A DNA stretch of 64,000 bases from Gordius sp. MW1. Lineage: Eukaryota > Nematomorpha > Gordioida > Gordea > Gordiidae. Shown here one piece after another: positions 32,116 to 57,979 of the stretch. Numbering within the stretch: the stretch's first letter is position 1; the number at the start of each line of letters is the position of its first letter. The notes beneath the pieces are model-generated. The model made no database searches, was not told the DNA's origin, and saw nothing but the letters and a program-made list of their open reading frames with translations. Position numbers and translations under genes: made by a program. The stretch spans positions 18,162,575-18,226,574 of the forward strand of contig OZ038533.1 of assembly GCA_964036665.1 (NCBI GenBank), in the 5' to 3' direction.

Positions 32116-32119
32116 AAAA

Positions 32120-35100
32120 TGCCGTGTTAATTAATCCACCTAAGGAAATATAATTTATAAAAAATACAAAGTGCCATTAAAAATTATTTATTGCAATAGT
32201 CATTCTCAGTTATTTGTGCTTCATAAAAGTGTTTCTGGTTATGAATCGTGGCAATAAAAATAAATTGGCGAGTTAATTGGTTTGGCTATTAATCCTTGTA
32301 AAGTTTGCACAGTCAATCTCTTATTGGATAGACAATATAATCAAACGAGTTTAGTATTGTATTATACCATTTATAGAAAAACGTTTCAACTTTTTTAATT
32401 AAAATGAATATCAAAATTTAACGTGCATTATTATAACTTTTAACTAATTTTAATGTATATACATTTATTTGCTTATTGAAGCAATTGCACGGTCTTTAAA
32501 TGATTTACATGTATTAGTTACGATTTACTTAGTTTGAATCGTATAAAAAGTAAAGTATATATAAACAATAGCAACAAATTTAACTTTCAAATAATTAAAG
32601 ATTTAAAAAATTTTATAAGCTTATTAGTACGCATCTTCATATAATACTAAAGAATTAACGCATGAAGAAATCATGGATTTTCTAACTAGATAAGCGAGAG
32701 TATGTTAAATTATGCATTTGTAACCTTATTTATAATCCAATTAACATGGTAATATCCCCTTATAGATACAAAAATAGTACAACGTTAACTTTTTGTATAA
32801 ATCAGGCAGGCTGAACGCATTTCTTGCAAATATAAATATTAATATAATATGACGTTATTTACCCAATTAAATACAAACCTTACTTATTTCCTCGCATCAC
32901 CTCGACTGATTTAATATATCTAATATTTTATTTAACACATATTTAACAACATAATATATTAATATGGAACTTTTTATAATAAATTATTTTGCACATAGAT
33001 TGACCTTATACCGTTACATTTTTAAACAATCTAAAATTTTAAATTTATGATATATAATAAGAACAAGCGCAAAATGTTGTGTTACTCTTTAAGATTCAAG
33101 TATGGGTTAAATAAATTATAATAATTGTGCTGAGGCCACAATAAGCCTCTTTCAATATTAGAATTTTTTATTTATTGTAGTTTTTAAGTTCAAACAAAAC
33201 ATAGTATTACAAAGTTTAAAAGCGAACATGTTATACATTCGGCTTACAGCTATTAAAACATCATAAAATACTTTTAAAATCGGTCAAATTAAATTTTTTA
33301 TCTTTGATTAAATTTATCTCATTATTTATTTAGTCTGGAATATAAGAGTTTAAACAATTAAGATGCCAATTTCCATGCAACAGGTATAGGGATTTTTAAA
33401 ACATTTTTATAAGTTTTAATAATACCTACAAACTTTTATGTGAATAAATCTTGATTAAATATATATTAGAGCCTTTTTAATTGTAATATAATAATTAATG
33501 GCAAAAAATAATATGTATGTATTAAGATAGCCGATTTTAAATTTATAAATTAAAACTCTAATCGAAAAATTGTATCATCATTTATTAATTTTAATAGAAA
33601 ATACTATTATCTAAATATTTTTTTGATAGTTAGATTGTAACCTATAGGTCAATTATTTAATAGCTAAATTATAAAATATAGGTTAATTTTAAAAATATTT
33701 TTCCCAATTAATATTAAATGCGTAAAATTTCTAAAACTATGTCATTTTATCGAGTGTAAAACCTACTTGTTAGCAAGAATTTGATGGGGGGGGGCGCGTT
33801 AAATGTACCAAAAGACTTTATAGAAAAGAACGAGAAAATATAATTGGTTGATGAATTAATAAAATATTTCTCCTCCTTTTTATATATATATATAAATAAA
33901 TAATGTAAGTCGATTATTTTTTAAAGGCGATCAATAATGTACCACAGCAAATCAATAATCCATACGAGCAATGACAGCTATAAACGTTGTGGTAATAATT
34001 ATTAAAATTAAATTTTAAAGTTATTTTTCACTCTAATCTTAATGTAGGAGTCCTAAAAAAGCTGCATGTTAAATGAAAGTTCTAAAATATCATATTTAAA
34101 TAAAATAAAATTTTAAATGCAAAAATAAGAAAACAGGCTTATTTTACCAATTTTAAGGGCATATTAGTGGTTTTCATGATTTAAATTCTTCCCATTATTT
34201 GTTCATTAAGTGTGCCCAATTTTAGTTTAAGGACAGAATACTTAATGCCACCCAAAAATTTCCCTAATTTTCTAATTCGTCACCTCGCATTTTTTGATAA
34301 CACAGATATGCCGAAAAGGTAAAAATATTTTCTAATTTAATTTAGTTTTGTACTATAAGCAATTGTTTGTTTATTAATAGAAAAAATAGGATTTTTACGT
34401 ATTATTTTAAGATGTCCAATATTGGTTGGAATTATTATCGCACAAATTACCAATCAAACAGGAAAAAGTCACAGAATGTATTTAGGTTTTGTAGAAAATA
34501 GATCGGATATAAAAATTTCTAAAAGATTGTATTTTTAGTTAATTAAGTTTTGCCTAAAATATGCAAAAATCATTGACTTTTAAGTCGCATATTTTATATA
34601 AGGGAGGGTTGATGATAACTCCTTATTAATATTTATAAAGTGTAAATGTGCAGCGGTTTCCTGTAGATTTCAAACAACTATGTCAAAATCAGCGTAAACA
34701 GGTCCTGGCATATGGTAATTTTTAAAAATTAGCCTTCTTTAACATGGCGAATGTAGAAATTACACATACATAGGATAGGTGCTAGTTCTAGTTAGATAAC
34801 TTAATTCTCAATATATATGCGAATTAAATTTAATATATATTAATGAGCGCGATTTGAATAAAATATAAATAAATTTGTTTAAATTTTAATCTGGAATTTG
34901 AGTTTACTTAATAGATCCTTATTTTATATTTATTACATCAATGGTCTAATTAATTTTTTAAAATTAATAATTTACAAAATATCAATAAAAAATGACAAGT
35001 TTTCTTTGCCAATATCATATAATTTTTCCACCTACTTTTTTACAAATGTTATGTTAATCACTTTATCCAGATTTATAACATTGTTTATACATTATATCGT

Positions 35101-38824: not shown

Positions 38825-41002
38825 CAGGGGTCGGCAACCTGTTTGTCCTTAAGGGCGCAATACTAATTTGAAAATCACCGAGGGCGCATATTTTACAGAT
38901 AATCAACAGGTATAAATAGGCATTAAAAAACAGATTTTTTATCACTTTATTTTGTTGGTGTCATATATAATGAATGATACGTATAATTCAGTGTGAAACT
39001 TGGGTGTCCATATTTTCAGCTAATTTCTTATAATTGGGGATATATTTAGAGTTCCCGGTCCTTAAACAATTATCTAAATGTGAGTCAGTAAGCTTTGTTC
39101 GGTATTTTGATTTCAAATAATTCATATTTGAGAACAAAGACTCGCAATTGTATGTTGTAGCACAATATGAATAAATTTTTAGCTCACATTTCCTTAAAAT
39201 AGGATAATGTTCATCGACTAAGTTCTAAAACGTTTTATCATTACTAAGCGCTTTTATAATAATATCACTTTGCAAGTTTATTATTTCTAATTTTAAGTCT
39301 TCGATATTATGAAGCTCAAAATACACTGAAACTATTTCAAGGACATCATCTTCAGTAACATTGAATGGATTTATGAAAGATCTTAGAACGGGTTCTAATG
39401 CTGCAAAATCTTCTATGAAGAAAACTCTTCTATTAGCTTATCTATAATTTTTAAATATGATGTAGCAGTAAAATTTTCATTATTCAAATTTAAACTATCA
39501 ACAGTATATTTTATATTTGGGAAATGTGATAATGATTTTTCAATAGATGGGATTTCAACAACACTAACTTGCATTTGAATGCATTTACTGCATTAATCAT
39601 GTCAGCGATATGCTGATTTTTCCCTTGTATTTTAAATTTAATACATTCAACTTTGCCGTTATATCTGTCAGAAATCCGAGGGCGATTAGCCAATCCTTAT
39701 TTCTAATTGCTCGTAAAATGCCATTTGATGCAATAAATTCCTTTATTTGTGGCAAAAGCATGATAAACCGCTCAAGTATTTTACCTCTGTTCAGCCACCT
39801 CACTTCAATATGTAAAAGAAGATCTGTGAATTGAACGTCCTCATCTTCTACAAGTAATTTAAACAATCTGTGTTGCATAGCTCCCGATCTTATGGAATTA
39901 ATAATTTTTGTTACTATCGTAAATACGTGTTGAAAACCGATTGTTTTTGCGCATAACATTTCCTGATGTATGAGGCAATGATAAGAAATAAATTTCGCGA
40001 ATAAGGTCCCTTTTTCTTACAGTCATCGCTGGTGCCCCGTCTGTTGTAATTGACGATAACTTTTGTACAGGTAATTTTACATCTGTTATTTACTTTTTAA
40101 AAGTAGAAAAGATATCTTCTCCTCTGGTGCTTCCCTTTAATGGCAGAATTTTAAGGAATTCTTCTTTTGTCGTAAAATCAGAAAATACCTTCACGCAAAT
40201 TGCTAATTGTGATATTTTTGTCACGTCTGTCGATTCATCTATCTGTAGCGAAAATAAAATACATTTTTCCATATCATTTGCTAATTCTGCCTCCAAATTC
40301 TCCGCAATTACTTCAATTCTTCTAGTAACAGTTTGCTGATAACTGCAACGTGTTTATAGCTTAAACTATTTCCTTTTTATTTTTAAATTCTTCAAAAAGT
40401 GAATCAGCAGCTTCTAACATGGCTTCTTTCACTAATTATCCATCTGTAAATGGTTTTTTATTCTTAGCTAGCAAATGCGATATTTTATATGACGCGATCG
40501 TTGCTGCTTTATGTGTTGCAGTGGTTTAGTAAAAATACTTTGCTGGTTAGTTCTTGAAGATTTCAAAGAAATAATTTTTTTTCTTCTAATTTCAGAGTTC
40601 ATTGGATGTCACTATCAAAATTTGTATGAACGGTCTTAAAATGTCGTTCAATATTACTTTTCTTGGGAAGCAACACTATTATTACACAGCAAACAAATAC
40701 ACTTCCCTTTGTAATCAACGAAACAATATAGATGTTCCCATTCATCGGTATAATAATATGTTCTTTTTCTTTTACATTTATCCATGAAGGGTTTTGAAAG
40801 AAAAGAATTATTTCGGATTACTTGGTAGTTTTAAATGCACGGTCTACGCGTGGTCTATTCGAAATACGATCACATACTAACAAAAAATACGTGCGTGTTA
40901 TTAGATACGGTTATCATACATTTACATTAGTCCAGCGAGGGCGCATTAAAAATCGATCGGGTGGCGCCATGGCGCCCGCGGGCGCCGCGTTGCCTACCCC
41001 TG
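38825..41002 (-). mobile_element. hAT element with ZBED/Charlie-like transposase, decayed
   Basis: Ends CAGGGGTCGGCAAC and GTTGCCTACCCCTG are inverted with one mismatch; target duplication TTCTAGGC / CTCTAGGC (38817-38824, 41003-41010) matches at 7 of 8. Minus-strand transposase pieces: 40296-40090 with FSLQIDESTDVTKISQLAI and TTKEEFLKILPLKG, and 39959-39511 with LLLHIEVRWLNRGKILERF, then NKDWLIALGFLTDITAKLN, the standard order around the hAT core. Stops between pieces and no C-terminal dimer segment make it inactive. Confidence 0.9.
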
Positions 41003-43267: not shown

Positions 43268-43275
43268 TATAAAAG
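43268..43275 (+). promoter_or_regulatory. TATA box of micro-exon gene 1
   Basis: TATAAAAG lies 91 bases before the ATG, in a block otherwise conserved with copy 2. In copy 2 the aligned site reads AGAATAGC, so the TATA match is lost there. Confidence 0.5.
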
Positions 43276-43358: not shown

Positions 43359-44316
43359 ATGAGCCTTTTCATCTTCATTGGAAGCACCTTGATCCTCTCA
43401 CCTGTCTTATCAGGTATAGTTTAAGTTTATAATGTATACGTATATAAATTTAAAAACCTTTTAGCTCCCTCTACTGGTAACATTTCATACAAAGAGGGTG
43501 GCGGCTGCCCCCCTCTAAATCTAAAAATTTGTTGAAATATATTAAAATTATGGCTAAAATTTTTGCCTCTTTCTAAATCAGTATTGCCCCCCTCTAACTC
43601 CAATGCTGGCTACGCCCATAAACAAACATCTCCCATAGTGTTTTTAAATGTTTTTTTTTAAATTTTGATAGATCGTATAGCTGCAGCAGTTAACCAAGCT
43701 GGTAAGCTTATTTTCTAGACAATTTAATATTATTAAACTTTGTGACTTAAAAAATGCATCTAATGTTGTGACTAGTAGAAAATAATTATTTAGCTTTTAT
43801 AATACTAGGATGAGCAAATATATAATTTATCTTTTTGACCTCTAAAGGTGTATTAATTATTTTAAGATAACTTTTGATCATATATGACATTTTTGTACTT
43901 TAATAAACAGTTGCATCTAAAGGTAGTGATTTTAATTTTTAAATAATAATGAAAACATTTAAATTTAATTTTTGAACATCTATAGTAGAAGTTAAACACG
44001 ATGAACCAGCCAAGAAAACACATCCTTTTGGTATTGTATTGAAAAGAATATTAACTTTGATTAAAATATTAAATTTGTAGTCTATTCAATTACGGGTAAT
44101 TTATATATTATGTTTTAAAAAATCCCCCAAAACAAATAGATAGCTTAATATGTCTATTTCTATATATATTTAAGCATCTGCTGCAACCACTTTAGGAAGT
44201 AAATCACCTTATTTAATTACCATAAGAAAATCATAAAGCAAAAATCAAATTTTATTATAGAACTTCAAATTGATCATGACAAAGCCACAACATCTTGGGG
44301 TGATTTTTTTGTGTAA
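43359..44316 (+). CDS. Micro-exon gene 1: small secreted protein
   Basis: Exons: 43359-43413, 43465-43476, 43672-43701, 43911-43922, 43986-44030, 44175-44198, 44261-44316. Internal sizes are 12, 30, 12, 45 and 24 nt, all multiples of three, all phase 1 to phase 1, with GT and AG at every intron. The joined frame gives 77 residues: a signal peptide MSLFIFIGSTLILSPVLS coded almost exactly by exon 1, then APST, DRIAAAVNQA, VASK, VEVKHDEPAKKTHPF, ASAATTLG and a tail KLQIDHDKATTSWGDFFV. There are no cysteines, so it lacks the CYC motif of aphid bicycle proteins. I know of no homolog by sequence; the architecture is that of schistosome micro-exon genes and of bicycle-type effectors, all secreted and rapidly evolving. 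AATAAA follows at 44583. Function is not inferred. The same exon plan is preserved in the copy at 55770. Confidence 0.78.
43490..43622. mobile_element. MITE in intron 2 of micro-exon gene 1
   Basis: GGCGGCTGCCCCCCTCTAAA at the left and CTGGCTACGCCCATAAAC at the right; same family as 35590. The aligned intron of copy 2 lacks it, so it inserted after the duplication. The left terminal repeat is eroded. Confidence 0.75.
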
Positions 44317-44582
44317 TCGTGTGCCAGTTAAAATATATAAGTATTAATTTAATTATAATTTACTAATCCCACATTTGAGACGAAGTTCTCATAATATTAT
44401 AATTACCTTTTCCCTCAACTTTCAATATTGTTGACACTTTATATTATATAAATTAAGTCATTTTATAGCTAATTCATTAATTAATAATCTCTTACAATTT
44501 CATACACTTTCATACACACGCCTTTATTATATAAACCATTTCATAATATGCTTATATACATTGTTCTCGCTCATAACTGATC

Positions 44583-44588
44583 AATAAA
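44583..44588 (+). terminator. Polyadenylation signal, micro-exon gene 1
   Basis: AATAAA in TGATCAATAAATCAATT, followed by a T-rich stretch GTTCAGTTTTATTATTCCCT. The same sequence is kept in copy 2 (57974-57979), which supports a real 3' end. Confidence 0.6.
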
Positions 44589-44676
44589 TCAATTAAAAAC
44601 GTTCAGTTTTATTATTCCCTGAATAGTTTAAAGATTTAAAAACAATTTTTGATAGGTAAAATATGTGTATGCGCAT

Positions 44677-45741
44677 TAGAGGTGTGCACGGATCAATCCG
44701 ATCCGACATCCGATCCGTCCGAACTCGGATTCGGACGGATCGGATCAACATTTTAATTTTGGAAGTCGGATCGGATCGGATCGGATCAACATTTTATTTT
44801 AGTCGGATCGGATAGGATTTTCAAATTTAAAATAAACAATAATAATTAAATTAATAATTTTTAGTATACCTTTTTATAATTATTTTTGCATTCTTTTTTT
44901 ACTTTAACATTTTTGATGCCCAATACCACCTCCTCACCCCTTACTTACCCTAATATATTTATCAGTACTTCCCTAGCGTTTTTCCCTAGCTAGACGTAGT
45001 TGACACGCATCTCTTTCTATTTCATTTCAACTCAACTCCGAAAATCATCAATCACTCTCCCCTTTCCTTAAAGCACACGCGTAGCTCCTTTCCCTCTTGA
45101 TTTCGGGTAATCATGAATGATGTAAGGGGTATTGTCTGGTGTGAGTCACGCCGACTTGAGAGGAAAAAATAATAGGGGGGGGGGGTGTTGGAAATCGGAT
45201 AAAGCCCCCGATGAAATCACAATTTACCTTTCGTTAAAAAATTAAGATTGCAAATATGATTCAAAAAAAGATTTGCTGAAATGGTGGGGTTCATATGAAA
45301 CAGTCCTGCCAAGGCTTTATAAGCTGGCAAATAAAGTTTTAGCTATACCTGCTACCTCTACCACTTCGGAAAAAAATTTCTCGGTGGCTGGAAGAACATT
45401 AGAAGAAAGAAGAACGCGAATTAAACCAGAAAATTTAGATTCTTTATTATTTTTTTATGATAATATAGAATTAGTCAAATAAAATTTTATATTTATTTCA
45501 GGTCTATTAAAATTGCTATACCTTATTTTTATGTATTTTGAATTTAATCATCAATAAAAAGTTCTGTTCGTAAAATTTTAATTTGAAAATTTCGGATCGG
45601 ATCGGATCGTATTTAGATTTTAAAAAACTCGGATCGGATCGGATTTAGATTTTAAAAAACTCGGATCGGATCGGATGGATATAAAATTTTTCAAAAACCC
45701 CTCGGATCGGATCAAAAAAATTTAATCCGTGTATACCTCTA
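44677..45741 (+). mobile_element. hAT element, 1065 bp, with GGATC-rich ends
   Basis: Ends TAGAGGTGTGCACGGAT and ATCCGTGTATACCTCTA are inverted (two mismatches), flanked by exact ATGCGCAT at 44669-44676 and 45742-45749. Subterminal arrays of CGGATCGGATCGGATC lie at both ends. The frame 45273-45482 encodes the hAT C-terminal dimer signature (VLAIPATSTTSEKNFSVAGR, LEERRTRIKPENLDSLLFFY). The rest of the transposase is missing, so this is an internally deleted copy. Absent from duplication copy 2. Confidence 0.92.
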
Positions 45742-46299
45742 ATGCGCATACATAATAATTATTCCCTTTAAAGTCAACAAAAAGCTTGGAAAAAATTGGG
45801 ATTGAAAGCATAAACTAAGTTAATCATATGTGTTTAATAAACTTATGTCATATTTAACTCTAGGTTCATTTATACTTTTTATACAATAATTTGATTAATT
45901 TAACATATAGGATGGTCATCAAATATACCGTGCGTTTAAAAGAGACCGCTGGTCCGCACCCTTTCTTAGATTACTATGCCAGCTCGAGTCTTCTTATTTT
46001 TTAATAAACTAGTGATTAACACGATCGTTCTCATTTCAAAAACTTTTAAGCCCTTCCGAGCCCCTTCGTATTTTTATGGTCTAAGGCAGTCAGTACCCGC
46101 TAGAAGAACAATTGAGTCTAGTAGTTAATTAGAAATAAAACAGTGTTTATTGCAATTTTAACATGTTGCATGAACATTAAAAATATTGTTGGAAAATATC
46201 ATCCAGAATTTCAATGCCAGCTCGCGACTTTTTTTTTTTTTTATATACTATTGGCTAACACTATCGTTCTCATTTCAAAAACACCTAAGCCCGTCCAAG

Positions 46300-46440
46300 T
46301 AGAGCCCTGCACGGGTGACCCGAAACCCGACCCGAACTTAACCCGACCCGAGGTCGGGTCGGGTTCGGGGTAAAAATTTTAAAAACTTTTGGGTCGGGTT
46401 CGGGTTGAAAAATTTTAATCGGGTCCGGGTCGGGTTGAAC
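46300..46440 (+). mobile_element. hAT terminal fragment with CCCGACCCGA repeats
   Basis: TAGAGCCCTGCACGGGT is a hAT-like terminus, followed by ACCCGACCCG and GGGTCGGGTT subterminal repeats. No matching right end was found. It is at the right border of duplication copy 1. Confidence 0.6.
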
Positions 46441-47100
46441 GTTAAATTTTATATTGAATAATAGACATATCTTTTGAATTAATGCTATTTAATATAATAT
46501 TTTATAATTAATATCGAAATGTATGATTAATTTATCTCATACATACATTTAAATTAATTTCTTTTAAGTTGTATCTGAATTTTGGAATTGCGCATTTTTA
46601 AACTCAGAAAAGTAAAATATCTAATGAACATGTATTTGATATCACAAGACTTATGATTTTCTTAATTCCCATTTTTCTTTTTTAAATATTAATGTCTCAA
46701 CTTGTTTTATCGCCTAACTTATACACTAGAATAAAATTAATTTATCATATTTTACAAACATGATTTAAAAAAAAGAGTTTTTGAAGTAATAATCTCCTTT
46801 CATTTTCGCACAATACTGCCACAACCGTTATTGGCCTTTTATTGCCCTGATTTATTCTATTTAGTATAAAAATAATTAATCGAGAAAATAAAAATGGCAG
46901 ATTTAACCCACTGTGTAGAAAGTTACCAATTATAAATATAACAATTTTTATAAAAAGGGCAAATTAAAAAAACAATATTATAATTGTATTAAAACGCAGC
47001 TACGACATGTTATTTATAAATTTGTCTATATTAACTAGGATAGGAATAGCTAGTTGGGAACCTTGATTAAATCTGGTTACCAAAGAAATGCCTTTGAATA
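46440..47100. other. AT-rich stretch, no gene seen
   Basis: I found no frame, splice pattern or repeat that I can support in this stretch. Confidence 0.4.
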
Positions 47101-47109
47101 CATAATCAG

Positions 47110-47260
47110 AGAAGACTGCCCCTCGTCTCGTCTCGGTCTCAAAAACAAAATGTCAAGTCAAGCGCTTTTTATAAAAATCTTGATCTCGTATTTTCTCGGC
47201 TCAAAAATTCTCCATCTCGTTTCGACGATAATTCTCGACTTGTCCCGACTTTGAAAAAAC
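47110..47260. repeat. CTCGTCTCG repeat cluster
   Basis: CCTCGTCTCGTCTCGGTCTC and later TCTCGTATTTTCTCGG resemble the subterminal repeats of the hAT at 47989-49412; probably the end of a second, older copy. Confidence 0.5.
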
Positions 47261-47769
47261 AATACACCATATAAATTCTGTCTAATGGCAAAAAATTAAT
47301 TTAAAAAACTTCAAGACATAAATTAAATAGTTAGTGCAACAGGCCATTAATCACGCTTATTCATTCAATCTAACATCCGCAAAATGATAGGAAAGAATAT
47401 AGTTTAACTGATTAATTATAATACCTTTGTGTTAAAACCCATGCGTTTGCCAAATATAAATTAACATCCTGCACTTAATTAAATTATAACTTTAGGCAAG
47501 CTAATGCCTATAAAGAACACTATCTTAAGCTCAAGGTACTGATCGTTAGTTAAATAATTTTAGATAAGAGTTCTATGCCTTCAATATAACAATCTTCAAT
47601 TACAGTCTTGCGTATTGCATGTTATAAAGTCACAAAGGTGCTAATATATACTGGTGATAATATTATCATTATATATGCACATATTAGAACGGTCAAAAAC
47701 AGTTCGAAGAAAATCAGTATCTACTTTATACGCGAGAAACTACTAATGTTTGCTTGCTAGCGCATTTTA

Positions 47770-47988
47770 CAGAGAGAGAGGGGCTTATAGTGGTAATCCA
47801 ATCACAACATCATCCTCTTCAAAAAAGCTTCCTCCGACCCTAGTGTTTACCTTTCTCAGCTCTGTCTTTGGACCTGAATTTCTGACAGATGCAGACGTTT
47901 TACTATGGTAGCTTGTTCGGGCACATGTCTTGAACGATTTTCGGAAGACGTAATTCGCATGTATCTTGGGTTAACGGGATATGTCTTC
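47770..47988 (-). pseudogene. Coding-like GC-richer relic, distal part
   Basis: This piece, 49413-49496 and 52198-52860 become continuous when the hAT elements at 47989 and 49497 and one target duplication each are removed. On the minus strand the joined sequence has long open stretches (for example NPPPFVARLKGDLRRH across 49480-49413 into PLTQDTCELRLPKIVQD at 47980-47930), but at least one shift is needed and all three frames are fairly open here. No family recognised. Confidence 0.35.
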
Positions 47989-49412
47989 TAATGATGCGGA
48001 AAACCCGAGAAAAATCTCGGTCTCGTCTCGGATTTTGATGTCGAGACTAGACGATACGAAATTTTTTCGGCGAGATCTCGTCTTTTTATTGATCGTTAGA
48101 TTTTAGTAAATTATTGTGTCTTTTGATTTGCATGATTTACATTTAAGGTATAAGTGTAAATCAATATATAATGGAATATATTTGATATTAAAAAAATTCC
48201 GAAGTGTTGTAAAGATTATATATTTTTGCAAACAATTAAAAATTTGGCAATCTTTACTTTAGTATGGTTGACTTTTAGGGTATGTAAATAATTGTATAAT
48301 ATATTTATCACATATTTTAATCAATAGCATTATTAAAAATTACAAAAGTTTAGGCTTAGAATGAGTTCTGCTATAATAGTAAATATTACTAAATCATATT
48401 TGAATTTCGCAGTTACTCATCCTTCATGATGCGGTAATTATAAATTAAGACTTTATGTGAATACATAGTTTTTTCATATGCATTACTTTTCACGTTACAA
48501 GCTGGGTTGGCAGGTGCATTCAAATTTACGATAATTTCTATAATTGTGCAATATGAAATATATACAAGAACCTATATCGTATTCGATACATAACTATTTA
48601 ATGGCAAAGTTAATAAGGATTGGAAGGTTAATTATTTGGAATATAAATTTGATTATAATAATTTTTCACAAATTTAAATACGTGCACATTAATTTAAATC
48701 CTTATGTTCTTAATCCTATATAATGCTGATTTTATTGTTGTTTTTATAACTATTAATATGTACAACTAGTTGATCACTGGCACTTTGTGGTTCGTAACGC
48801 TATAGTGAACATGCAATAAACACCATGGGCTATTGATGATGGTAATATCAATGAACTTAAACGTTGCCTTAAATATGTTAAGGTCTACTTTGAAGCTTTA
48901 GCCAGGGTAAAAAACGGGTCTCAATTTTCTCAATTGGCAACTAAGTCAACTATAAGCGAACTTATAATTTTCTCAGTCTATTTAAAGTTGACAAACACAG
49001 TGAAATTGATACAAATGTTATAGTTTGCTAGAACAATAAAATTTAATTTTATATACTTCAAATTTATTTTTAGTTTGCACTTTCCTATAAATATTTTCTT
49101 TATGAATTAATTAATATCTTTATATTGTCAATGAGATGTCGTGTCCCGCTAAATCATTAAAAAGTTTGTGTATTAAAGTTTACTAAAAAAATATAAAAGT
49201 TTTTGGATTTTTTAACACTTACTTAATATTTTTAATAAAACAAGAGAGAGATTTTTTCCGTATATATTTTTTTTAAAAGTCGAGACGAGACGAGCTTGTC
49301 GAGACGAGACGAGATCGAAATTTTTCTAGACCAAGACGAGACGAGATTGAGATTACCGAGACGAGACGAGATTTTGTTTTCGAGATCGAGACGAGACGAG
49401 ATCGAAACACTA
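47989..49412. mobile_element. hAT element with GAGACGAGACGAG ends, 1424 bp
   Basis: Flanked by exact ATGTCTTC at 47981-47988 and 49413-49420. Ends start TAATGATGCGG and finish GATCGAAACACTA; both subterminal regions are full of CTCGTCTCG / GAGACGAGACGAG. No transposase seen, so non-autonomous. Confidence 0.85.
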
Positions 49413-49496
49413 ATGTCTTCTAAGATCCCCTTTCAAGCGAGCTACGAAGGGTGGGGGGTTGTTGTAACTTAACAGGACATCGATGGTAGAGTCCTG
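49413..49496 (-). pseudogene. Coding-like relic, middle part
   Basis: Short segment between two hAT elements; minus-strand frame includes LLSYNNPPPFVARLKGDL. See 52198-52860 and 47770-47988. Confidence 0.35.
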
Positions 49497-49918
49497 CAAA
49501 ATAAAATTTTTTCTGCCCGAGCCCGACGTCCCAGTTTTTATTTTGTCCACGCCCGGCCCAAGCCCCAACGACTTTTTTATTTTTGGCTTGATCCAATTTT
49601 TCAGATAGAAAATTTTCAAAAATTCAAGTGTTATTACTCGTAATTTACAACTAGAATAAGTTTAAAATAATTTTCATTTTCACTCGCTACAATTTATTTA
49701 GCTAATAATTGAAAACTGGAAATCTAACTTTATAAAATATTTTTTATCTAACAGTTCCAAAGGAAAAACTTTTTAAAATAATTGCTTACTTTATTCCTAA
49801 AGTGATAGCAACTATGAAAATATTTAAATACTAGAATAAGATTTGCATTAATATTAAAGGCAAGGGGAAAAAGCTCAAGCTTGGAAGCTATATTATGTAT
49901 GGTGTACGAAGATAATTA

Positions 49919-52092
49919 TTAATTGCTATGCAATTTATGGGCTCGTTTTTGGTTGTCCGTTGTCCGTTGTCTGTCCGTTGTCCGTTGTCTGTCCGTTGTC
50001 CGTCCGTTACCCTCCCTATCTATTTGCATTGGGTATATTAGGTTATCGATTTTTTAAATTAATGCATGAGAAAGCGGTGCCCCACCCCTCATCTCTATCA
50101 AGAGGTGCCCCACCCCTCATCTCTATCTCCCTCGCTTTCGGGCGGGGTCGGGTTTGAATTGCTACGTTAAATTAATGCATAAGTATATCTATATTTAAAT
50201 TTTGGTAATTGCTATGCAATTTAACTAGTTTTGGGGTTAGAATCCCGGAGTTTTTTTTGACTCTTATGATTGTTCTTGTTACTATCATTGATAATAAGAC
50301 TTTTTGGCCGTCCGCTGGCTGCTGACCAATGAAAAAAATGACCATTGGCCAAAATGTGAATCCGAGTTTATTTTTTCGTTTTTTTTGACTATTATGATTG
50401 TTCCTATTACTACCATTGCTATTATGCCTTTTTGACCGTCCGTTGGCTGCTGACCAATGGAAAAAAATCACCATTGACCAAAATGTGATTCGAATTTTTT
50501 GTTTTTGTTTTTTTTGACTATTATGAATTTATATCCACTTTTACCGTGTCCTGGCTGCTGACCAATGGAAAAAAATGACCATTGGCCAAAATGTAATTCG
50601 AAAATTTTTTTTTAATTTTTTTTGACTATTATGAATTTATATCTACTTTTACCGTGTCCTGGCTGCTGACCAATGGAAAAAAATGACCATTGGCCAAAAT
50701 GTGATTCGAATATTTTTTTTAGTTTTTTTATTATAAGTTTATATTTACTTTTACCGTGTCCTGGCTGCTGACCAATGGAAAAAAATGACCATTGGCCAAA
50801 ATGTGATTCGAAAATTTTTTTTTTCGTTTTTTTTTGACTTATGAATTTATATCCACTTTTACCGTGTCCTGGCTGCTTACCAATGAAAAAAAATGACCAT
50901 TGGCCAAATTTTATATATAACCTAAAAATTTATTATAGATGGTCTAACAGACAGCCAACTATGTAATATATATTTTTAACCTTATAAATGCATATATATT
51001 TTTTTATTGGGTTAATATATTTCATTTAATTAGATTGTGATTTCATAGAAAACCTAAAAATTAATATTTAAAAAAATAATATAGGTATTAGATTCTAATT
51101 TACGATAAAATATATCGATAGAAACTAACACAAAATTCGAAACCTCCTTCAAAGGTATAATCATAGCCCGTTATTTCTAATTAAATTGAATCTACTATTA
51201 AACTCAAACACGAATTGTACTTTATTAGATGGCGCGCGTAAGTTTATATAATTAGTAAAATTTTTGTACGTGTCATAGATATTACACCGCACGTGTGTCA
51301 GGTAAAAGTCCGATATTTTTAAAATGAAAAGGTATTTTAGGAATCTGAAAAGGTTATTTTACCCCCGGCCGCCCTGGGCACCTACGGGTAAAGTTTCGAG
51401 CGAATCGGGCTGGTAGTTTAAGAATTTAGCCCTTTTTTAAAACTAAAAAAAAACTTTTTTTTTTAATTTTTTTTTTACATTAAATTAATATTTTGTTTTT
51501 GTTAATACCATTGATAATATGACTTTTTGACCGTCCGCTGGCTACTGACCGACGAAATATATTGATTTTCTAAACATAAAACACAACTTTATTATTTCAT
51601 TATCTATATAAATAACATAATAACTTCTACTATTTTAAAGCCAGCATGGTATAGTGGTTATAGCGCCGGCTTTTGAACTGGAGGTGTGGGGTTCAAGTCA
51701 GGGAGGCGACAAATTTTTTTTTTAAATTTTTTTAAATTTAATTAATATTTGTTCATGTTAATACCAATGATAATATGAATTTTTGACCGTCCGCTGGCTA
51801 CTGACCAATAAAAAAATGACCATTGGCCAAATAAATCGAAATTGTTTTTCGTTTTTGAATTGGTTAACATTGATAATTACCCTATGTCCTCCCCTACAAG
51901 GGCCTATAACTAATTAACTAATTATTTTGCATCTAATACCCCCTATAGGCATTCTCGCCCCTTCCCACCTTTCTCGCCCATAAATTGCATAGCAAATATG
52001 CTACGTTTATACGGAGTATAGAAGAGTTCCCCCTTCCCCTTCCCCTACTCCCCTTTCCTTCTCCCCCTTCCCACGAGGGCCGAAGGCCCGAG
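49919..52092 (-). repeat. Repeat element E, copy 5 (full length, reversed)
   Basis: Starts TTAATTGCTATGCAATTTATGGGC and ends GAGGGCCGAAGGCCCGAG, with the same order of modules as 5934-8090 reversed: CCGTTGTCCG runs, GGTGCCCCACCCCTCATCTC pair, CCAATGG/CCATTGG units, the conserved block around CACGAATTGTACTTTATTAG, and the tRNA-like stretch. Its clean junctions inside the hAT define both ends of the family. Confidence 0.9.
51640..51710 (+). repeat. tRNA-derived sequence inside element E
   Basis: GGTATAGTGGTTATAGCGCC (A-box region) and GGGTTCAAGTC (B box) at tRNA spacing, with TTTTGAA in the anticodon loop position, suggesting tRNA-Gln(TTG) ancestry. Stems are imperfect. Confidence 0.55.
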
Positions 52093-52197
52093 TTTTTAAT
52101 ATCGAGTTGAGTTTGTTTAAATCATATTTTATAAAAGATTAGTTTACTTTAGTCATATCGGGCCGGGCTCGGGTCGGGCGGCCCGTGCAGGGTTCTA

Positions 52198-52860
52198 ATT
52201 GATGGCTAACGATTGACCACGTAGATCTAGGCGTCATTAGATTCGGTCTGCTCTACCAAAAGTTTTCGTTTTGCGCAACCCCGCCGTATCTTTCTTGAAC
52301 AATTCCGTTAAATTATCGGTAACGTCGCTATACACATCAGCCATCGGCACCCGGGCACCAGTGTTATCACTTAAAATAAAATAATTGTAACAAGGTTTCT
52401 TGCATAAAATGTAACTCCGCCTATCATATTTACGACAGATAACCTTGGACCTGACTACAATGGTATAACCTTTCATCGAACAACGTGCGAAGTTTCGGTA
52501 ACTAATCAATTATATAAATCACACCATGCGCAACAGCAAAAATATTGCCCACCCAGGAAATCCAACCTCGTTAAACCTATGTAGAGGTGATACGGAGTAT
52601 AGCCAAAAACAGGTCATTACGGGCATTTTGCCTCTGAATATCAATTCGCATCTGGGTTTAACGTACGCGCATGCAATACCAAATTTCATCGTCAGATCAT
52701 CGTCTTACACGTACTGCTCTGTATCGGCAGAATTCCTTCGGGCTTGGCCCTACCGTATCTATGCATCGACATTACCCTTCAGCGCATATGTACCACACTG
52801 TCTTGTAGACAACCTTCATGCATAATGTTAAGTACCATCACGTCGTTTTGTCCATACGCC
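52198..52860 (-). pseudogene. Coding-like GC-richer relic, proximal part
   Basis: Base composition is plainly less AT-rich than its surroundings. Minus strand: MAYGQNDVMVLNIMHEGC near 52860, then, after shifts and stops, MKFGIACAYVKPRCELIF (about 52690-52635), and an intact 90-codon frame 52509-52237 with VVRSKVICRKYDRRSYILC, KKPCYNYFILSDNTGARVP and TDNLTELFKKD. Cys, Arg and Tyr are frequent. The plus strand is also open at 52526-52825, but the minus reading makes more sense across the whole block. Not recognised; possibly an old captured gene or a dead transposon protein. Confidence 0.4.
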
Positions 52861-52869
52861 ATCAAAAAA

Positions 52870-53640
52870 AAAACGAAAAACGTTTCTTAAGACATTATAA
52901 TATGTGAAAATTTACACTAATAACTCTTTTAATTAAAAAATATTAACTCGTAATTCAATTTAGGCTTAATATTTTAAAATCTTTGAAAATAATAATTTAT
53001 TTACTAGTTGTTAAAGTTTCAAAAAAGTAACTGCTACCAGTTCATCGTTTTCCTTCCTTTAAATTAATATAATTCTTTAGTATATAAATTAGCTGATGCA
53101 ATTGAGTTAATAATAGGTTAATTATTAAAATGATGTTTTAAATATGTAAAATCTTAATAGATTAAAGCTGTTGTCAAAATTTGAAATTTCTCAAATGTTT
53201 CCTACTATTTTTGAATAAATTCTGGTCACGTAGTTCTATAAGTCTTAAGAGAAATTTGGCTACGACGTTTATTGCCACTGGGCTGCAAAAAAACAACACT
53301 GATCAAAAATAATGGCCTTATAAAATCACTCTGCAAACAGTTTGCAGATTCTGGTAGAGTTTTTTACGGTGAGTACAAATGTATTTTTGTTTTTCTCTAT
53401 ACGTCAATTTTTTAAAAATATTTGATGTGTTGGCTAAAACAGCATTTTGGAATTATTAAAATATCAATAACTTGCAAAATAATCGGTAAAATTTTAGTCT
53501 AATAAATTTGATTTCTAAACAAAGGGGAGAGGAAATATTTTTTACCCTAGCTCTTTTAATTTTTGATATATATTCAATTGACAAATGGCCTTAGACTTAA
53601 GGTCGCTCTGTCTTCCCTTTAAAGAAATTAAACGTGTTGT
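52870..53640. other. AT-rich stretch, no gene seen
   Basis: I found no frame, splice pattern or repeat that I can support in this stretch. Confidence 0.45.
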
Positions 53641-53654
53641 TGTTTATCTAGTAC

Positions 53655-53785
53655 TACTAAGGGCCTGCACGGCCCGGCCCGATGGTTTAATCGGGCTTCT
53701 GGTTTAAAATAAAAAACGGGCCGGGTCTAATAAAACCTAATGGACTCGGGCTAAGCTTAGATAAACTTAAGGCCGCTAAAAGCCC
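53655..53785. mobile_element. hAT terminal fragment
   Basis: GGGCCTGCACGGCCCGGCCC followed by CGGGCTTCTGG, CGGGCCGGGTC and GGACTCGGGC; same style as the ends at 46300 and 49497. No partner end found. Confidence 0.5.
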
Positions 53786-53789
53786 GTTG

Positions 53790-54165
53790 CAAAATTAATT
53801 AGGTGTTTATTTGTGAATAAGTATAAAAAAAGGTTTGTTCTTATATTGCTCCAATTTACAATTATATTTGATGGTTATTAAAGTAACAAGGATTTAATGG
53901 ATTCCTCTCCCTTTTATTTACCATTTAATTTATCAAATTTAAATTTTACCTATAAATTTGCACTTATTAACGTTTAAAAAACACCAAAATCGCTGTGTTT
54001 GGTAAATTTGTCAACAAATTGACGTATAGGGAAAAAATTAAAAATTTATTCAAGTTCACGGCGAAAAACTCTACCAAAATCAGCCAACAGTTTGCCGGTC
54101 GATTTTTCTTGTTGAATTTGTTATTTACTTAAAAATCTCACCTTTGATATTTTGTTAACATTATC
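53790..54165. other. AT-rich stretch before duplication copy 2
   Basis: No supported feature. Confidence 0.4.
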
Positions 54166-54209
54166 ATCCAATTGCAGGATATTTTAAAGGCTATATGAAG
54201 GATGGCTGT

Positions 54210-54389
54210 CATAGGCGTAGCCAGGTTTTGGTTTAGGGGGGGGGGCGAAACGTTTAAAAGTTTAATTAGAGGGTGGCAAAACATAAAATTTTTAATTTTT
54301 AAGAATTTTTGCATTGAAAATTTTTTTCCCGTCATTTAGGAGGGAGGGGCATGCGGCCCCCCTCCCTGCCCACCTTGGCTACGCCCATG
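54210..54389. mobile_element. hAT-like MITE, 180 bp
   Basis: Ends CATAGGCGTAGCCAGG and CTTGGCTACGCCCATG are inverted; exact ATGGCTGT on both sides (54202-54209, 54390-54397). It interrupts the word GATGGCTGTTG that is intact at 41034 in copy 1, so it inserted after the duplication. Confidence 0.92.
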
Positions 54390-54515
54390 ATGGCTGTTGT
54401 TTTCCGTCATAAACAAATTTTTTTTATTAATTTGTCTAAAGGTTGAATGAAGGTTTTTAAAAAGAAAATAGGCACTGTGGCCTTCCTTCTGCCTAATAAA
54501 TATCCAGTTCTATTT

Positions 54516-54620
54516 AGTGTTGTAAAAACGGCTGGGTTTTGTTTGATCGATCTTTGGTTTAGCTAAGATGTCTGTTTTTCAAATTTCGACTAAGCCTATT
54601 GGTCGAGTAGTAGGGAGGTA
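54516..54620. mobile_element. MITE remnant, TAGTGTTGTAAAAA end
   Basis: TAGTGTTGTAAAAACGGCTG is the same end as the MITE at 5787, followed by GATCTTTGGTTTAGCTAA shared with 41150. The right end is eroded. Present in both duplication copies. Confidence 0.6.
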
Positions 54621-55769
54621 GACTGGAATACACCTTTTTAAATTTTTAAGAGTTTTTCTCGTTTTTAAAATAAATTAGTTGATCTACGCGTAAATTTTCC
54701 AATTAATAATTAAATTTTATAAATTATAAAGTTTATAACCATTATATTCGCTCTTGTCTTAAGAAATCCTTTTTATCCATATATTCTTGAGACAATTTAT
54801 TAAATAATCACGACAATTTGCTTATCCCTATAAATTAAGATAAAGCTTTGTTTCTAAGCCTTTGAACCGTTTATTTCTAACACCTTTATAAATACATGGA
54901 CAATAAACATACTAAAGTTTATGAAAAAAATTTCTAAAATTTTTATCATAATAGATATATAAGGGATCAATAACATTTTAAGCCTTTTTTCCAAAAAGCG
55001 TTTAATCAGTTAAGAAGGATACCAAAATTTGCAACATTCTTTAAACGAGGTGGAGTAGGCTGATCTATCTACATATATATTCTTTAATTAGTAATATATT
55101 ACATCAATCTCATGTTCAAATGAAATATGCAATCAGTAGATGTGACAGGTAGTTTTGGTGGGATTTTATCAAAAGATCACTATGGAAATCGTCAAATCTC
55201 ACACGATTTCCATACACGGATCAATGCCATCCAATTAGATTTTAACGCGTTTTCTTTTTTATTTTATTAACCAATGTATTTTATCCCATGTGATACCAAT
55301 AACTTAATAAATGAATATATTTAAAAAAAAATATAATAAAAAAAAATTAAATTAAATTTATTTATTTGTAGAAATTATGGGTTATATAATATATTTAAAA
55401 CATTTTGTTCCTTATTATTGGGATATATTGAAGTTAAAAATAATATTTTTCAATCTTCCACAGCCAATTTGGCAAACGAACATACTGTTATTTTACCTTT
55501 AAACCTGCCAAAATTTTCAAAATATTTTTGATTTGCGAAAGCTATTTTATTTATTTTAATGGATTTCAACAAATAACACATTAGCCAAAAGTCAGGGGAA
55601 ATGTACTTTAATAAGAATGACTATGAACTATCAAATATTTGGGTAATTTTGTAAACATATTATCCGTAATCTGATCACACTAGAATAGCTAAATATCCAT
55701 TCCATTCTTACATTTAATTCATTTACAGTTGTAGCATATTGCTTGAATCCTAAAACACCTTTATTGACA

Positions 55770-57650
55770 ATGAACCTTTTCATCATCATTTTAAGCACAT
55801 GTTCCTCTCAACTGTCGTATCAGGTATTTTTTAAGTTTATTGTACTTATAGAAATTTAAAAATCTTTTAGCTCCCTCGACTGGTAAAATTTAAGAATAAT
55901 ATTTAGCATAATGTTTTTCGAGGTATTTATTGATCTATGTATTTTTAATTTTGATAGATCGTGTAGCTGAAGCAGTTCCGAAAGCTGGTAAACTTATTTT
56001 CTGACAATTTATATAATTACACTTTGTGACTTAGAAATGCATTCAGTTGTGACAAGTAAAAATTAATTATTTAAAGTTTAATAATACTTAAATGGGCAAA
56101 TATATAATTTATATTATTTATAAGCGCCCAAATCTGCCATAGATGGTGAGGGATACTGAATAAAATTTTTGGTTCTTTAGCCTGTACTTTTTTACAATTT
56201 ACTTAAACATACAACGTTTAAGTTGTTAAAATGTTCACTGAAGTTGTCACCATATCTAATTCTTATTTATCAAAATTATAACGGTCAAATATTTTAACAT
56301 CTATTTGGGGTTTTTAGTGCAAAATGATGACCCTGTGACAACTGTTGCCCCTCTTGCTGGTAAACCAAATCCCTGGCAAAATACATTTTAAAAGCTTTTA
56401 TTAATTGTTTTGTTATTTGAATTTTTATTACATAGTCATGAAAGATATATTTTGTGAAGATTAAACAAATAATTTATAATTATTAGCGAATTTATCAAGT
56501 AATGTTAACCAGTCTCAAAACATTAATATTCTTTCCAACATCTTTCTTTTTAACGAATTCATGTTATAATTTCAAATTAGCCAGTATAAACACTAAACAA
56601 ATCGAACAAATGTTTGTATTATTAAAGAAGTTAATTTTTTCAAAGAAAATTGTTTGTTCAAATTAATTAGAAGTTCAACAAGACGAGTTTGTCAAGGAGA
56701 CTTCAGCCTCGAGTAATTTTATTTTATTTAATGTTTAATGTCTTGTATATGGATTAATAACTACATATTCCTGTTGAATTTTTAATAGCCAATGTCATAA
56801 GTATTTGGAAAATTAATAATCCTATCTTAATAAATATCGTTTTAACCCGCTCTAGCTCAAAATCCACATCATGGTCATCAATTCCGCAGGTTAACTAATC
56901 AAAAAATATTTTATATACAAATTTTTTTTAAATATCATTATTTATTCTGCTCCATATTAAATTTAATTTTATTAATATTTTTCTCAACTTCTAATTAAAA
57001 TTATGATCTTTTTGATTTTATTAAACGGTTGCATCTCAAGATAGTGTTATTAAATTATAATAAAAACATTGAATTTAACTTTTTGAACATTTCGGGAAAA
57101 ATAATACCACAAGGATAAAGTAATAAGTACTTTATTAAATATCCAATTAAAGTAAATTGTATGCGAGAACAAAAAGTTAACTGGTGTATATAAAATTCTT
57201 TTATATATACATATATTAATTGGAATCAATTAAGTTTAGTGTTGCCTCCGCGAGGTATAAACAAATCAATTATATATAGTGGTGATACCTCGAGGTATGC
57301 TTGGTGGTCAATTAACGTTGCGAAATCGTAAGGGACAATTAAATCAATTAAGCCAATGGACACAACAAACATCTAGTTGAAGTGCAACACGATGAACCAG
57401 CCAAGGAAACTCATACTTCAGGTATTGTATGGCAGAGATTATTAAATTTAATTAAAATATTAAATTTGTAGTCAATTCAACTACAAATAATATTATATTT
57501 TGATAAATTCCAAGAACAAATAGTCTATTATGTCTATTTTTATAATTTATTTCAGCATCTGCTCCAAACACTTTAGAAGGTAAGCTTCCTTATTTAACTA
57601 CCATGATAAAATCATAATCCAAAAAATGAATTTTATTATAGAACTTTAAA
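55770..57650 (+). CDS. Micro-exon gene 2: diverged copy, signal peptide damaged
   Basis: Exons matching copy 1: 55770-55823, 55871-55882, 55958-55987, 57377-57421, 57556-57579 and a last exon from 57642. Extra exons here: 56318-56359 and 56671-56712, both 42 nt, phase 1. A one-base loss in exon 1 puts the old ATG (55770) out of frame; the only in-frame start is ATG 55799, giving MFLSTVVS before APST, too short for a normal signal peptide. From there the frame is open through DRVAEAVPKA, VQNDDPVTTVAPLA, EVQQDEFVKETSAS, IEVQHDEPAKETHTS, ASAPNTLE and stops at once in the last exon (TAA 57647). The partner of the 12-nt exon 4 (57029-57040) has lost its AG and its GT. A possible 34-nt exon at 56856-56889 would break the frame. 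Either a decaying gene or one with a different first exon. Confidence 0.6.
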
Positions 57651-57973: not shown

Positions 57974-57979
57974 AATAAA
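57974..57979 (+). terminator. Polyadenylation signal, micro-exon gene 2
   Basis: AATAAA conserved with 44583 in copy 1, again followed by a GTTCTGTTTTATTATTCCCT stretch. Confidence 0.5.

What the first reader, a model, noticed from the sequence alone, without database searches (positions are those of the whole stretch)
43359..57650. Duplicated pair of micro-exon genes for small secreted proteins
Seen: in two separated copies the same exon plan is kept (12, 30, 45, 24 nt internal exons with GT/AG sites), every internal exon symmetric in phase 1, exon 1 coding almost exactly a signal peptide, and a shared AATAAA. Known: this design is characteristic of schistosome micro-exon genes and resembles aphid bicycle effectors, where exon skipping creates protein variants. 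Inference: a small family of rapidly diverging secreted proteins. The product has no cysteine and matches no family I know, so it may be undescribed.
Basis: partly seen in the sequence, partly recalled or inferred. Interest (0 to 1): 0.92.

Follow-up and report, generated by a model that had tools for sequence, protein, structure and literature searches.

The report
Horsehair-worm micro-exon genes for secreted proteins
A parasitic horsehair worm carries a small family of genes that seem to build secreted proteins from long strings of tiny interchangeable exons, a design known from blood flukes and gall aphids, here in an unrelated phylum and with unrelated proteins.

Summary
The exon plan is real, and the finding is larger than reported. 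The genome is a horsehair worm (Nematomorpha, near Gordius). The two window copies belong to a family of at least 11 loci on three contigs. Copy A (43359-44316) is an open model: an 18-codon signal-peptide exon, six symmetric micro-exons (12, 30, 12, 45, 15, 24 nt) and a terminal exon, 82 aa. Copy B (55770-57649) keeps the 12/30/45/24 exons, but its signal exon is out of frame and its TATA box altered; it is probably decayed. Three longer relatives further along the contig (I, J, K) hold at least 18-21 intact internal micro-exons, all multiples of 3 and read from codon position 2. Among them, significant purifying constraint appears only in the predicted frame. Their predicted products are acidic, Thr/Ala-rich, nearly cysteine-free and rich in N-glycosylation sequons; no relatives were found. 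Best reading: a secreted, modular, glycosylated, disordered protein varied by exon turnover and probably exon skipping. It works like schistosome MEGs and aphid bicycle genes but failed homology tests for both. No transcript evidence was available.

The parts
43268..43274 (+). copy A: TATA box (TATAAAA) 91 bases before the ATG
   Evidence: TATAAAA lies at -91 to -101 in A, C, D, E, H, I and at -74 in K; altered in B; the aligned site is deleted in J, where only another TATAAAA at -31 remains
43359..43413 (+). copy A exon 1, 55 nt, codes the signal peptide MSLFIFIGSTLILSPVLS plus one base
   Evidence: frame kept in 8 of 9 copies with a 5' end; signal peptide judged by eye
43465..43476 (+). copy A micro-exon, 12 nt (APST)
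   Evidence: AG/GT intact in all nine copies A-E, H-K
43490..43623 (+). copy A: dispersed repeat inside intron 2 (approximate ends)
   Evidence: query part 191-332 matches many places genome-wide; the same repeat is in the same intron of C and D, not of the other copies
43672..43701 (+). copy A micro-exon, 30 nt (DRIAAAVNQA)
   Evidence: AG/GT intact in nine copies; 27 nt in H
43911..43922 (+). copy A micro-exon, 12 nt (VASK)
   Evidence: homologous to the 12-nt AASE/AASK exon of I, J, K; splice sites not intact in B, C, D, E, H
43986..44030 (+). copy A micro-exon, 45 nt (VEVKHDEPAKKTHPF)
   Evidence: 45 nt and intact in A, B, C, D, H; 36 nt with a moved acceptor in E; 42 nt (EVQHDEPAKETRPA) in K, degenerate in I
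44081..44095 (+). copy A micro-exon, 15 nt (VYSIT)
   Evidence: homologous to VNSTT of C, D, J and VNSAT of I; donor lost in B
44175..44198 (+). copy A micro-exon, 24 nt (ASAATTLG)
   Evidence: AG/GT intact in nine copies
44261..44316 (+). copy A terminal exon, coding part to the stop
   Evidence: open with the chain, 82 aa in all; variable C-terminus among copies
44583..44588 (+). copy A poly(A) signal AATAAA
   Evidence: the 3' region to about 44620 is conserved in other copies
55770..55823 (+). copy B exon 1, 54 nt: signal-peptide exon out of frame with the following exons
   Evidence: its TATA box is also altered
55871..55882 (+). copy B micro-exon, 12 nt (APST)
55958..55987 (+). copy B micro-exon, 30 nt (DRVAEAVPKA)
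56125..56145 (+). copy B micro-exon, 21 nt (APKSAID)
   Evidence: same exon in E and, as APKSAAA, in I and J
56318..56359 (+). copy B candidate micro-exon, 42 nt (VQNDDPVTTVAPLA)
   Evidence: AG/GT, in-frame similarity to four QNDxP-type exons of J
56487..56498 (+). copy B candidate micro-exon, 12 nt (ANLS)
   Evidence: AG/GT and open; not shown to be shared
56671..56712 (+). copy B candidate micro-exon, 42 nt (EVQQDEFVKETSAS)
   Evidence: AG/GT, in-frame similarity to A's 45-nt exon
56789..56800 (+). copy B candidate micro-exon, 12 nt (ANVI)
   Evidence: resembles ANVI/ANVT/ANGT of I, J, K (22 of 30 bases)
57377..57421 (+). copy B micro-exon, 45 nt (VEVQHDEPAKETHTS)
57556..57579 (+). copy B micro-exon, 24 nt (ASAPNTLE)
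57642..57649 (+). copy B terminal exon: stops after two codons in the chain's frame
57974..57979 (+). copy B poly(A) signal AATAAA

Best explanation
This is a micro-exon gene family of a gordiid horsehair worm. Each intact gene starts with a TATA promoter and an exon that codes only the signal peptide. Then follows a string of symmetric 12-51 nt exons, all entering and leaving after the first base of a codon, and a variable terminal exon. Any internal exon can therefore be skipped, lost or duplicated without changing the frame. The product is a secreted, acidic, disordered protein, assembled from two kinds of module: longer exons with a (V/I/L)Q(N/T/H)DxP core and Thr runs, and short exons that often carry an N-glycosylation sequon. 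Most likely it is glycosylated and released at the worm's surface or from a gland, where changing exon content changes its length, charge and glycan number. Shown: anatomy, family, frame-specific constraint in I/J/K, exon turnover among paralogs. Inferred: splicing, secretion, glycosylation, exon skipping. Least certain: that it acts at the host interface (about 0.4).
For: Family of at least 11 loci. Signal exon in frame in 8 of 9 copies with a 5' end. Of a reference list of 23 internal exons, I, J and K keep 18, 20 and 20 with AG and GT, all multiples of 3; K has one more, 42 nt. Silent excess in the predicted frame: one-sided Fisher p 0.035, 0.016, 0.018; the six other-frame tests give 0.33-0.84, although silent rates are slightly higher there too in 4 of 6. 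Invariant positions: exons 91.9%, deep intron 85.0%, donor +3 to +6 36 of 36, acceptor -3 to -12 96.0% of 99. Exon length differences that I noticed among open copies are multiples of 3 in six of six (H exon 1 +3, H 30-nt -3, H 21-nt -6, E 45-nt -6, K versus J -3, K versus I +3; not an exhaustive scan, terminal exons and B's signal exon left out), while 18 of 96 short indels in the I/J/K alignment are. Of 36 pairs of QNDxP-type exons, 14 scored, all 14 in frame. Sequons 7, 8, 7 in I, J, K against shuffle means 2.5, 3.4, 2.9, p 0.003, 0.006, 0.011. Subfamily profiles match, E 3.9e-18.
Against: No transcript, EST or proteomic evidence. In the A/B/C/D/E/H set dN is at or above dS in 8 of 15 pairs (A-C dS 0.025, dN 0.171), so constraint is not shown for A itself. 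The three p values share sequences and are not independent. The core exons were picked because they share AG/GT in all three copies, so 100% AG/GT is by construction and donor +3/+4 partly so. The QNDxP exons were grouped by me on their peptides, which favours in-frame similarity. The exon list was partly chosen by eye, which could favour sequon-bearing candidates, although one sequon-bearing candidate shared by all three (VTNCSL) was dropped. Two-way controls are less clean (J-K forward 22/8/13 by length mod 0/1/2, reverse 11/7/13). B and J lack the conserved TATA box, B is out of frame, and F and G are 3' pieces only, so part of the family is decaying.
Confidence: 0.78

Rival explanations
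1. The genes are real and secreted but serve reproduction or egg deposition (seminal, spermatophore or egg-string glycoprotein). Rapid change then comes from sexual conflict, not from the host.
For: Fast change, glycosylation-rich disordered products and small clustered families fit seminal and mucin-like proteins equally well (general knowledge); nothing or 60 separates the two.
Against: None direct. The closest architectural parallels (schistosome MEGs, bicycle genes) act at the host interface, but that is analogy only.
Confidence: 0.3
2. The genes make structural surface mucins or cuticle-matrix proteins of the worm, with a fixed splice form and no use of exon skipping.
For: Symmetric exons also arise simply from repeated exon duplication. 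Exon gain and loss among paralogs explains the diversity without alternative splicing.
Against: Exons of only 12-18 nt between introns mostly of 50-420 nt are an unusual way to encode a fixed protein.
Confidence: 0.2
3. The family is a set of decaying relics: once coding, now mostly pseudogenes whose splice sites survive by recent duplication.
For: B is out of frame and its TATA box is altered; J lost the conserved TATA box and carries a roughly 4.5 kb insertion in its 3' part; F and G are 3' pieces; A-C shows dN above dS.
Against: Purifying selection in the predicted frame among I, J, K; open models in A, C, D, E, H, I, K with in-frame signal exons and TATA boxes.
Confidence: 0.1
4. Non-coding locus or mobile element whose AG..GT spacing mimics exons.
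For: AT-rich DNA holds many AG and GT pairs. Another duplicated stretch (F/G upstream, only 66% identical over 1706 columns, so a weak control) also has shared candidates: 3 mod 0 (2 open in the predicted phase) and 3 mod 2 forward, 3 and 3 reverse.
Against: Length, frame and dN/dS controls in I/J/K, in-frame exon-to-exon similarity in 14 of 14 scoring pairs, and only 11 loci found genome-wide.
Confidence: 0.04

Closest known systems
Schistosome micro-exon genes (MEGs)
   Same: A signal-peptide start, then 10-20 very short exons that are mostly multiples of three (6-81 bp), separated by longer introns; small secreted proteins described as disordered (longest 189 residues), some predicted O-glycosylated; some clustered; among the fastest-evolving schistosome families (PMC10526429 abstract and passages; PMC5825161 section 4 and passages).
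   Different: Different phylum (Nematomorpha, not Platyhelminthes); no sequence relative found in protein searches whose sources include UniRef and nr; acidic and almost cysteine-free; N-glycosylation sequons in many short exons; shorter introns (mostly 50-420 nt).
Aphid bicycle genes
   Same: Many small internal exons, nearly all starting at codon position 2; on average about 17 exons, minimum 5; many with N-terminal signals; little sequence similarity to known proteins (PMC9168663 passages).
   Different: No CYC motif and almost no cysteine; not an aphid; no sequence relative found.
Hypervariable modular effectors of cyst nematodes (HYP family; recalled, no call)
   Same: Modular, repeat-based variable secreted proteins in an ecdysozoan parasite.
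   Different: Recalled as tandem-repeat variation, not symmetric micro-exon arrays; not compared here.

Membership tests
Schistosome MEG family | most coding exons very short and multiples of three | tested here: met
   I, J, K: 18, 20, 20 intact internal exons of 12-51 nt, all multiples of 3, one more in K; A: six
Schistosome MEG family | N-terminal signal peptide | tested here: met
   hydrophobic exon-1 peptide in frame in 8 of 9 copies; judged by eye, no signal-peptide program run
Schistosome MEG family | sequence homology to a named MEG | tested here: not met
   no protein with E <= 10 for either subfamily profile; the word-based search misses distant relatives and one search scored only the 8000 best candidates
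Schistosome MEG family | introns of about 0.1-5 kb | tested here: inconclusive
   here mostly 50-420 nt, one of 1662 nt in I
Schistosome MEG family | isoforms by exon skipping | not testable with these tools
   no RNA data held
Aphid bicycle genes | internal exons start at codon position 2 | tested here: met
   the modelled internal exons of A, C, D, E, H, I, J, K; the models were built in this frame, the frame test is
Aphid bicycle genes | cysteine-tyrosine-cysteine (CYC) motifs | tested here: not met
   cysteines: I 0, J 0 (partial), K 1 in the mature models; A, C, D, E 0, H 2 without the motif
Aphid bicycle genes | sequence homology | tested here: not met
   with the limits named above

The most novel reading that the evidence does not exclude
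A horsehair worm uses a splice-coded glycan repertoire: each symmetric micro-exon is a cassette that adds or removes one N-glycan or a Thr-rich mucin patch, so that one locus makes many glycoforms of a host-facing secreted protein. This would be a third, independent origin of the micro-exon solution in a parasite lineage, possibly tied to survival in the insect body cavity or to host manipulation.
Probability: 0.2. Interest if true: 0.9.

Novelty: new variant of a known kind. Interest (0 to 1): 0.74.

Why it matters
Micro-exon arrays for secreted proteins are known from blood flukes and from gall-forming aphids and their kin. An unrelated family with the same frame logic in a third phylum would argue that symmetric micro-exons are a repeatable route to variable secreted proteins in parasites. 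It also gives concrete candidate genes in horsehair worms, whose secreted factors are, as far as I recall, little known at the gene level. The smallest exons are often missed in annotation (PMC8831610, abstract as listed, on plants), so such families may be overlooked in other parasite genomes. The sequon-per-exon pattern is a testable idea that I did not meet in the MEG and bicycle passages read here.

Tried and rejected
The 18S search (family RF01960) did not complete twice and was replaced by mitochondrial COX1. Pfam gave four weak hits with unrelated names, E 0.03-0.23, the two with a printed cut-off below it, taken as chance. No solved structure matched subfamily 2 (subfamily 1 not searched). 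The first DNA search was crowded by a dispersed repeat in A's intron, so the query was cut to avoid it. A search for ordinary genes (PF00118) was meant as a splice-site control, but their exact exon borders were not worked out and it is not used. Phase-1 AG..GT candidates dropped from the models include some shared by I, J and K (alignment columns 964-991, 1676-1739, 1792-1810, 2469-2505, 2583-2601, 4490-4508) and some shared by two (for example 489-520, 623-669, 4567-4621, 4710-4779), because of weak sites or no likeness to other exons; that choice was by eye. Structure prediction was not run: the spliced proteins are not contiguous in the DNA and disorder is expected. Schistosome and aphid origins were rejected by COX1.

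Papers: PMC10526429 abstract and passages; PMC5825161 section 4 and passages; PMC9168663 passages; PMC10380579 passages; PMC6649704, PMC8831610 and PMC10721905 only in search listings. Whether such genes are in print for Nematomorpha rests on two searches of this open library only; one paper holds both 'nematomorph' and 'microexon', and by its title it is on histone-demethylase genes; 12 of 121 papers listed, none of those 12 with 'nematomorph'. Subscription papers are not covered.

CORRECTED ON REVIEW: the intron-2 repeat is shared by A, C and D, not private to A; K has one more exon (42 nt, homologous to A's 45-nt exon) than the model, so the 192-aa K model and its counts lack it. Neither changes the odds given.
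Full report
ORGANISM. The window is part of contig C7 of a 211.8 Mb, 12-contig genome. Contig C12 (14,798 bp) is the mitochondrial genome. Its COX1, read with code 5, is 95% identical to Gordius sp. VVA-2019 and 87% to Gordionus alpestris; of the other 118 hits listed, two nematomorphs are at 80-81% and the rest at 67% or below. This is a gordiid horsehair worm (phylum Nematomorpha). The mitogenome also has repeated in-gene stretches, reminiscent of the inverted repeats reported for this phylum (PMC6649704 and PMC10380579, seen as listing and passages). I did not test them.

OBSERVATION. In copy A the chain is 55 (signal), 12, 30, 12, 45, 15, 24 and a terminal exon. It is open throughout and codes 82 aa. 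Both have homologues in other copies, but both have lost sites in some paralogs, so they may be optional. Without those two the chain is open as well, 73 aa. Copy B keeps 12, 30, 45 and 24 and has further candidates, including two 42-nt exons. Its signal exon, however, does not fit the frame, its TATA box is altered and its last exon stops after two codons. B is probably decayed; I made no attempt to read through it.

FAMILY. DNA searches of the whole genome found 11 loci. A, B, I, J and K lie on C7 between 18.2 and 18.37 Mb; C and D on C7 at 1.71 Mb; E, F and G on C5 at 17.2 Mb; H on C1 at 2.09 Mb. F and G hold only the 3' part, and the BLAST of A and B against 60 kb there found a signal exon only in E. 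The other nine have a 5' end. The signal exon is in frame in eight of them, broadly M-x-LFSIILSTLFLxxVLS, and is 55 nt long in seven and 58 nt in H. TATAAAA stands 74-101 bases before the ATG in seven of nine. A, C and D share a dispersed repeat in intron 2.

THE LONG RELATIVES. I, J and K align in pieces at 82-92% identity. Against a list of 24 exons shared by at least two of them (the signal exon and 23 internal ones), they keep 18, 20 and 20 internal exons with AG and GT, all multiples of 3 between 12 and 51 nt, mostly with introns of 50-420 nt. K has a further 42-nt exon, EVQHDEPAKETRPA, which matches A's 45-nt exon and is degenerate in I. I and K share a terminal exon ending in APTNQTEDALTTV. 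J's 3' part lies about 4.5 kb further on, past an insertion. Some exons are intact in two copies and have lost a splice site or are deleted in the third. Because the exons are symmetric, such a loss does not disturb the frame. The subfamilies match each other as profiles (E 3.9e-18), and the signal, 12-, 30-, 21-, 15- and 24-nt exons correspond between subfamilies in most or some copies; most of the other exons of I/J/K found no clear partner in A-E and H by that scan.

CONTROLS. Counting AG..GT candidates of 9-60 nt shared by I, J and K with equal length gives 13 of length mod 0, 1 of mod 1 and 2 of mod 2; on the other strand 3, 1 and 2. One search does not require equal lengths (13/1/3 and 6/1/2). 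Binomial p is 3e-4 for 13 of 17 and 8e-4 for 12 of 16; nested candidates make this approximate. Pairwise counts are less clean (mod 0/1/2: I-J 20/1/7, I-K 18/5/6, J-K 22/8/13 forward; 7/5/9, 12/7/12, 11/7/13 reverse). The stronger test is the frame. Over the signal exon and ten core exons, silent change exceeds replacement change in the predicted frame for all three pairs (one-sided Fisher p 0.035, 0.016, 0.018) and not significantly in any of the six other-frame comparisons (p 0.33-0.84; in four of the six the silent rate is slightly the higher). The pairs share sequences. The core exons were chosen for shared AG/GT, so AG/GT invariance is by construction; that all 36 donor +3 to +6 positions examined are invariant, against 85.0% of 1401 deep-intron positions, is only partly so. 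Six exon length differences that I noticed among open copies are all multiples of 3, against 18 of 96 short indels in the I/J/K alignment as a whole (the six are read and are not an exhaustive scan). Nine QNDxP-type exons, grouped by me on their peptides, give 36 pairs; 14 align with positive score over at least 24 bases and all 14 in frame, with shuffle p from 0.002 to 0.096; 22 pairs do not score. Internal exon duplication in frame is the simplest reading.

AGAINST. For A, B, C, D, E and H the substitutions do not show purifying selection: dN is at or above dS in 8 of 15 pairs (A-C 0.171 against 0.025), with Fisher p 0.019 for excess replacement in A-C but 0.18 in A-D. This fits either diversifying or relaxed selection, and the data do not separate them. 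Exons are nevertheless more alike than aligned introns in 12 of the 15 pairs and about equal in C-D; in A-C and A-D the introns are slightly the more alike. There is no transcript evidence.

PRODUCT. The predicted mature proteins of I, J (partial) and K have 22-24 acidic against 3 basic residues, about 20% Thr, 0, 0 and 1 cysteines, and 7, 8 and 7 N-glycosylation sequons against 2.5, 3.4 and 2.9 in shuffles. Many short exons carry one sequon each (NAS, NVT, NDT, NST, NNT, NET). Copy A itself has none; C, D, E and H have 2, 3, 1 and 2. No relative was found among the 8000 (capped) and 5823 candidates scored, none over a Pfam cut-off, and none in the PDB for subfamily 2. The two protein searches depend on shared five-residue words, so distant relatives could be missed, and how many nematomorph nuclear proteins the database holds is unknown.

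MECHANISM. Shown: a multigene family of symmetric micro-exons with frame-specific constraint in one subfamily and exon turnover among paralogs. Inferred from sequence: TATA-driven transcription, splicing, secretion through an exon-1 signal, N-glycosylation. Inferred by analogy: isoforms by exon skipping, and action at the host interface (about 0.4; reproduction about 0.3).

COMPARISON. The architecture matches the published description of schistosome MEGs (10-20 short exons, mostly multiples of three, 6-81 bp, signal peptide; PMC10526429) and the frame of aphid bicycle genes (internal exons start at codon position 2; PMC9168663). Homology to either was tested by search and not found, and the CYC motif is absent. 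It works like them; it is not filed as a member.

VERDICT. A real, larger-than-reported micro-exon gene family in a horsehair worm, for which I found no description in the searches named. It is a new variant of a known kind, with transcription still to be shown.

Noticed in passing
window 31438-32130 (-): Open frame of 230 aa with two FGLGK(R) units near its end: looks like an allatostatin-A type neuropeptide precursor (label recalled). No Pfam hit at E 0.001.
   Followed up: no
window 15022-15663 (-) and 39597-40016 (-): Open frames that look by eye like hAT-type transposase fragments; no Pfam hit at 0.001.
   Followed up: no
window 43490-43623: Dispersed repeat of about 120-150 bp inside A's intron 2, shared with C and D, with another copy in a different intron of H and many places in the genome.
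   Followed up: partly
C12 (L030, L031): Mitochondrial genes contain repeated short stretches, and one COX1 codon at a usually conserved lysine is AGG, read as Ser by code 5. The repeats may be the inverted repeats reported for hairworm mitochondria.
   Followed up: no
C1, C3, C4, C5, C8: Several stretches on the large contigs resemble mitochondrial COX1, one nearly full length (C8:2829490-2830827): nuclear copies of mitochondrial DNA or an assembly effect.
   Followed up: no
C7:18290143-18294664 (copy J): Roughly 4.5 kb insertion, gag-like by eye, splits the 3' part of copy J.
   Followed up: partly
window 44684-44800: Short tandem-like repeat (cggatcggat...) just downstream of copy A.
   Followed up: no
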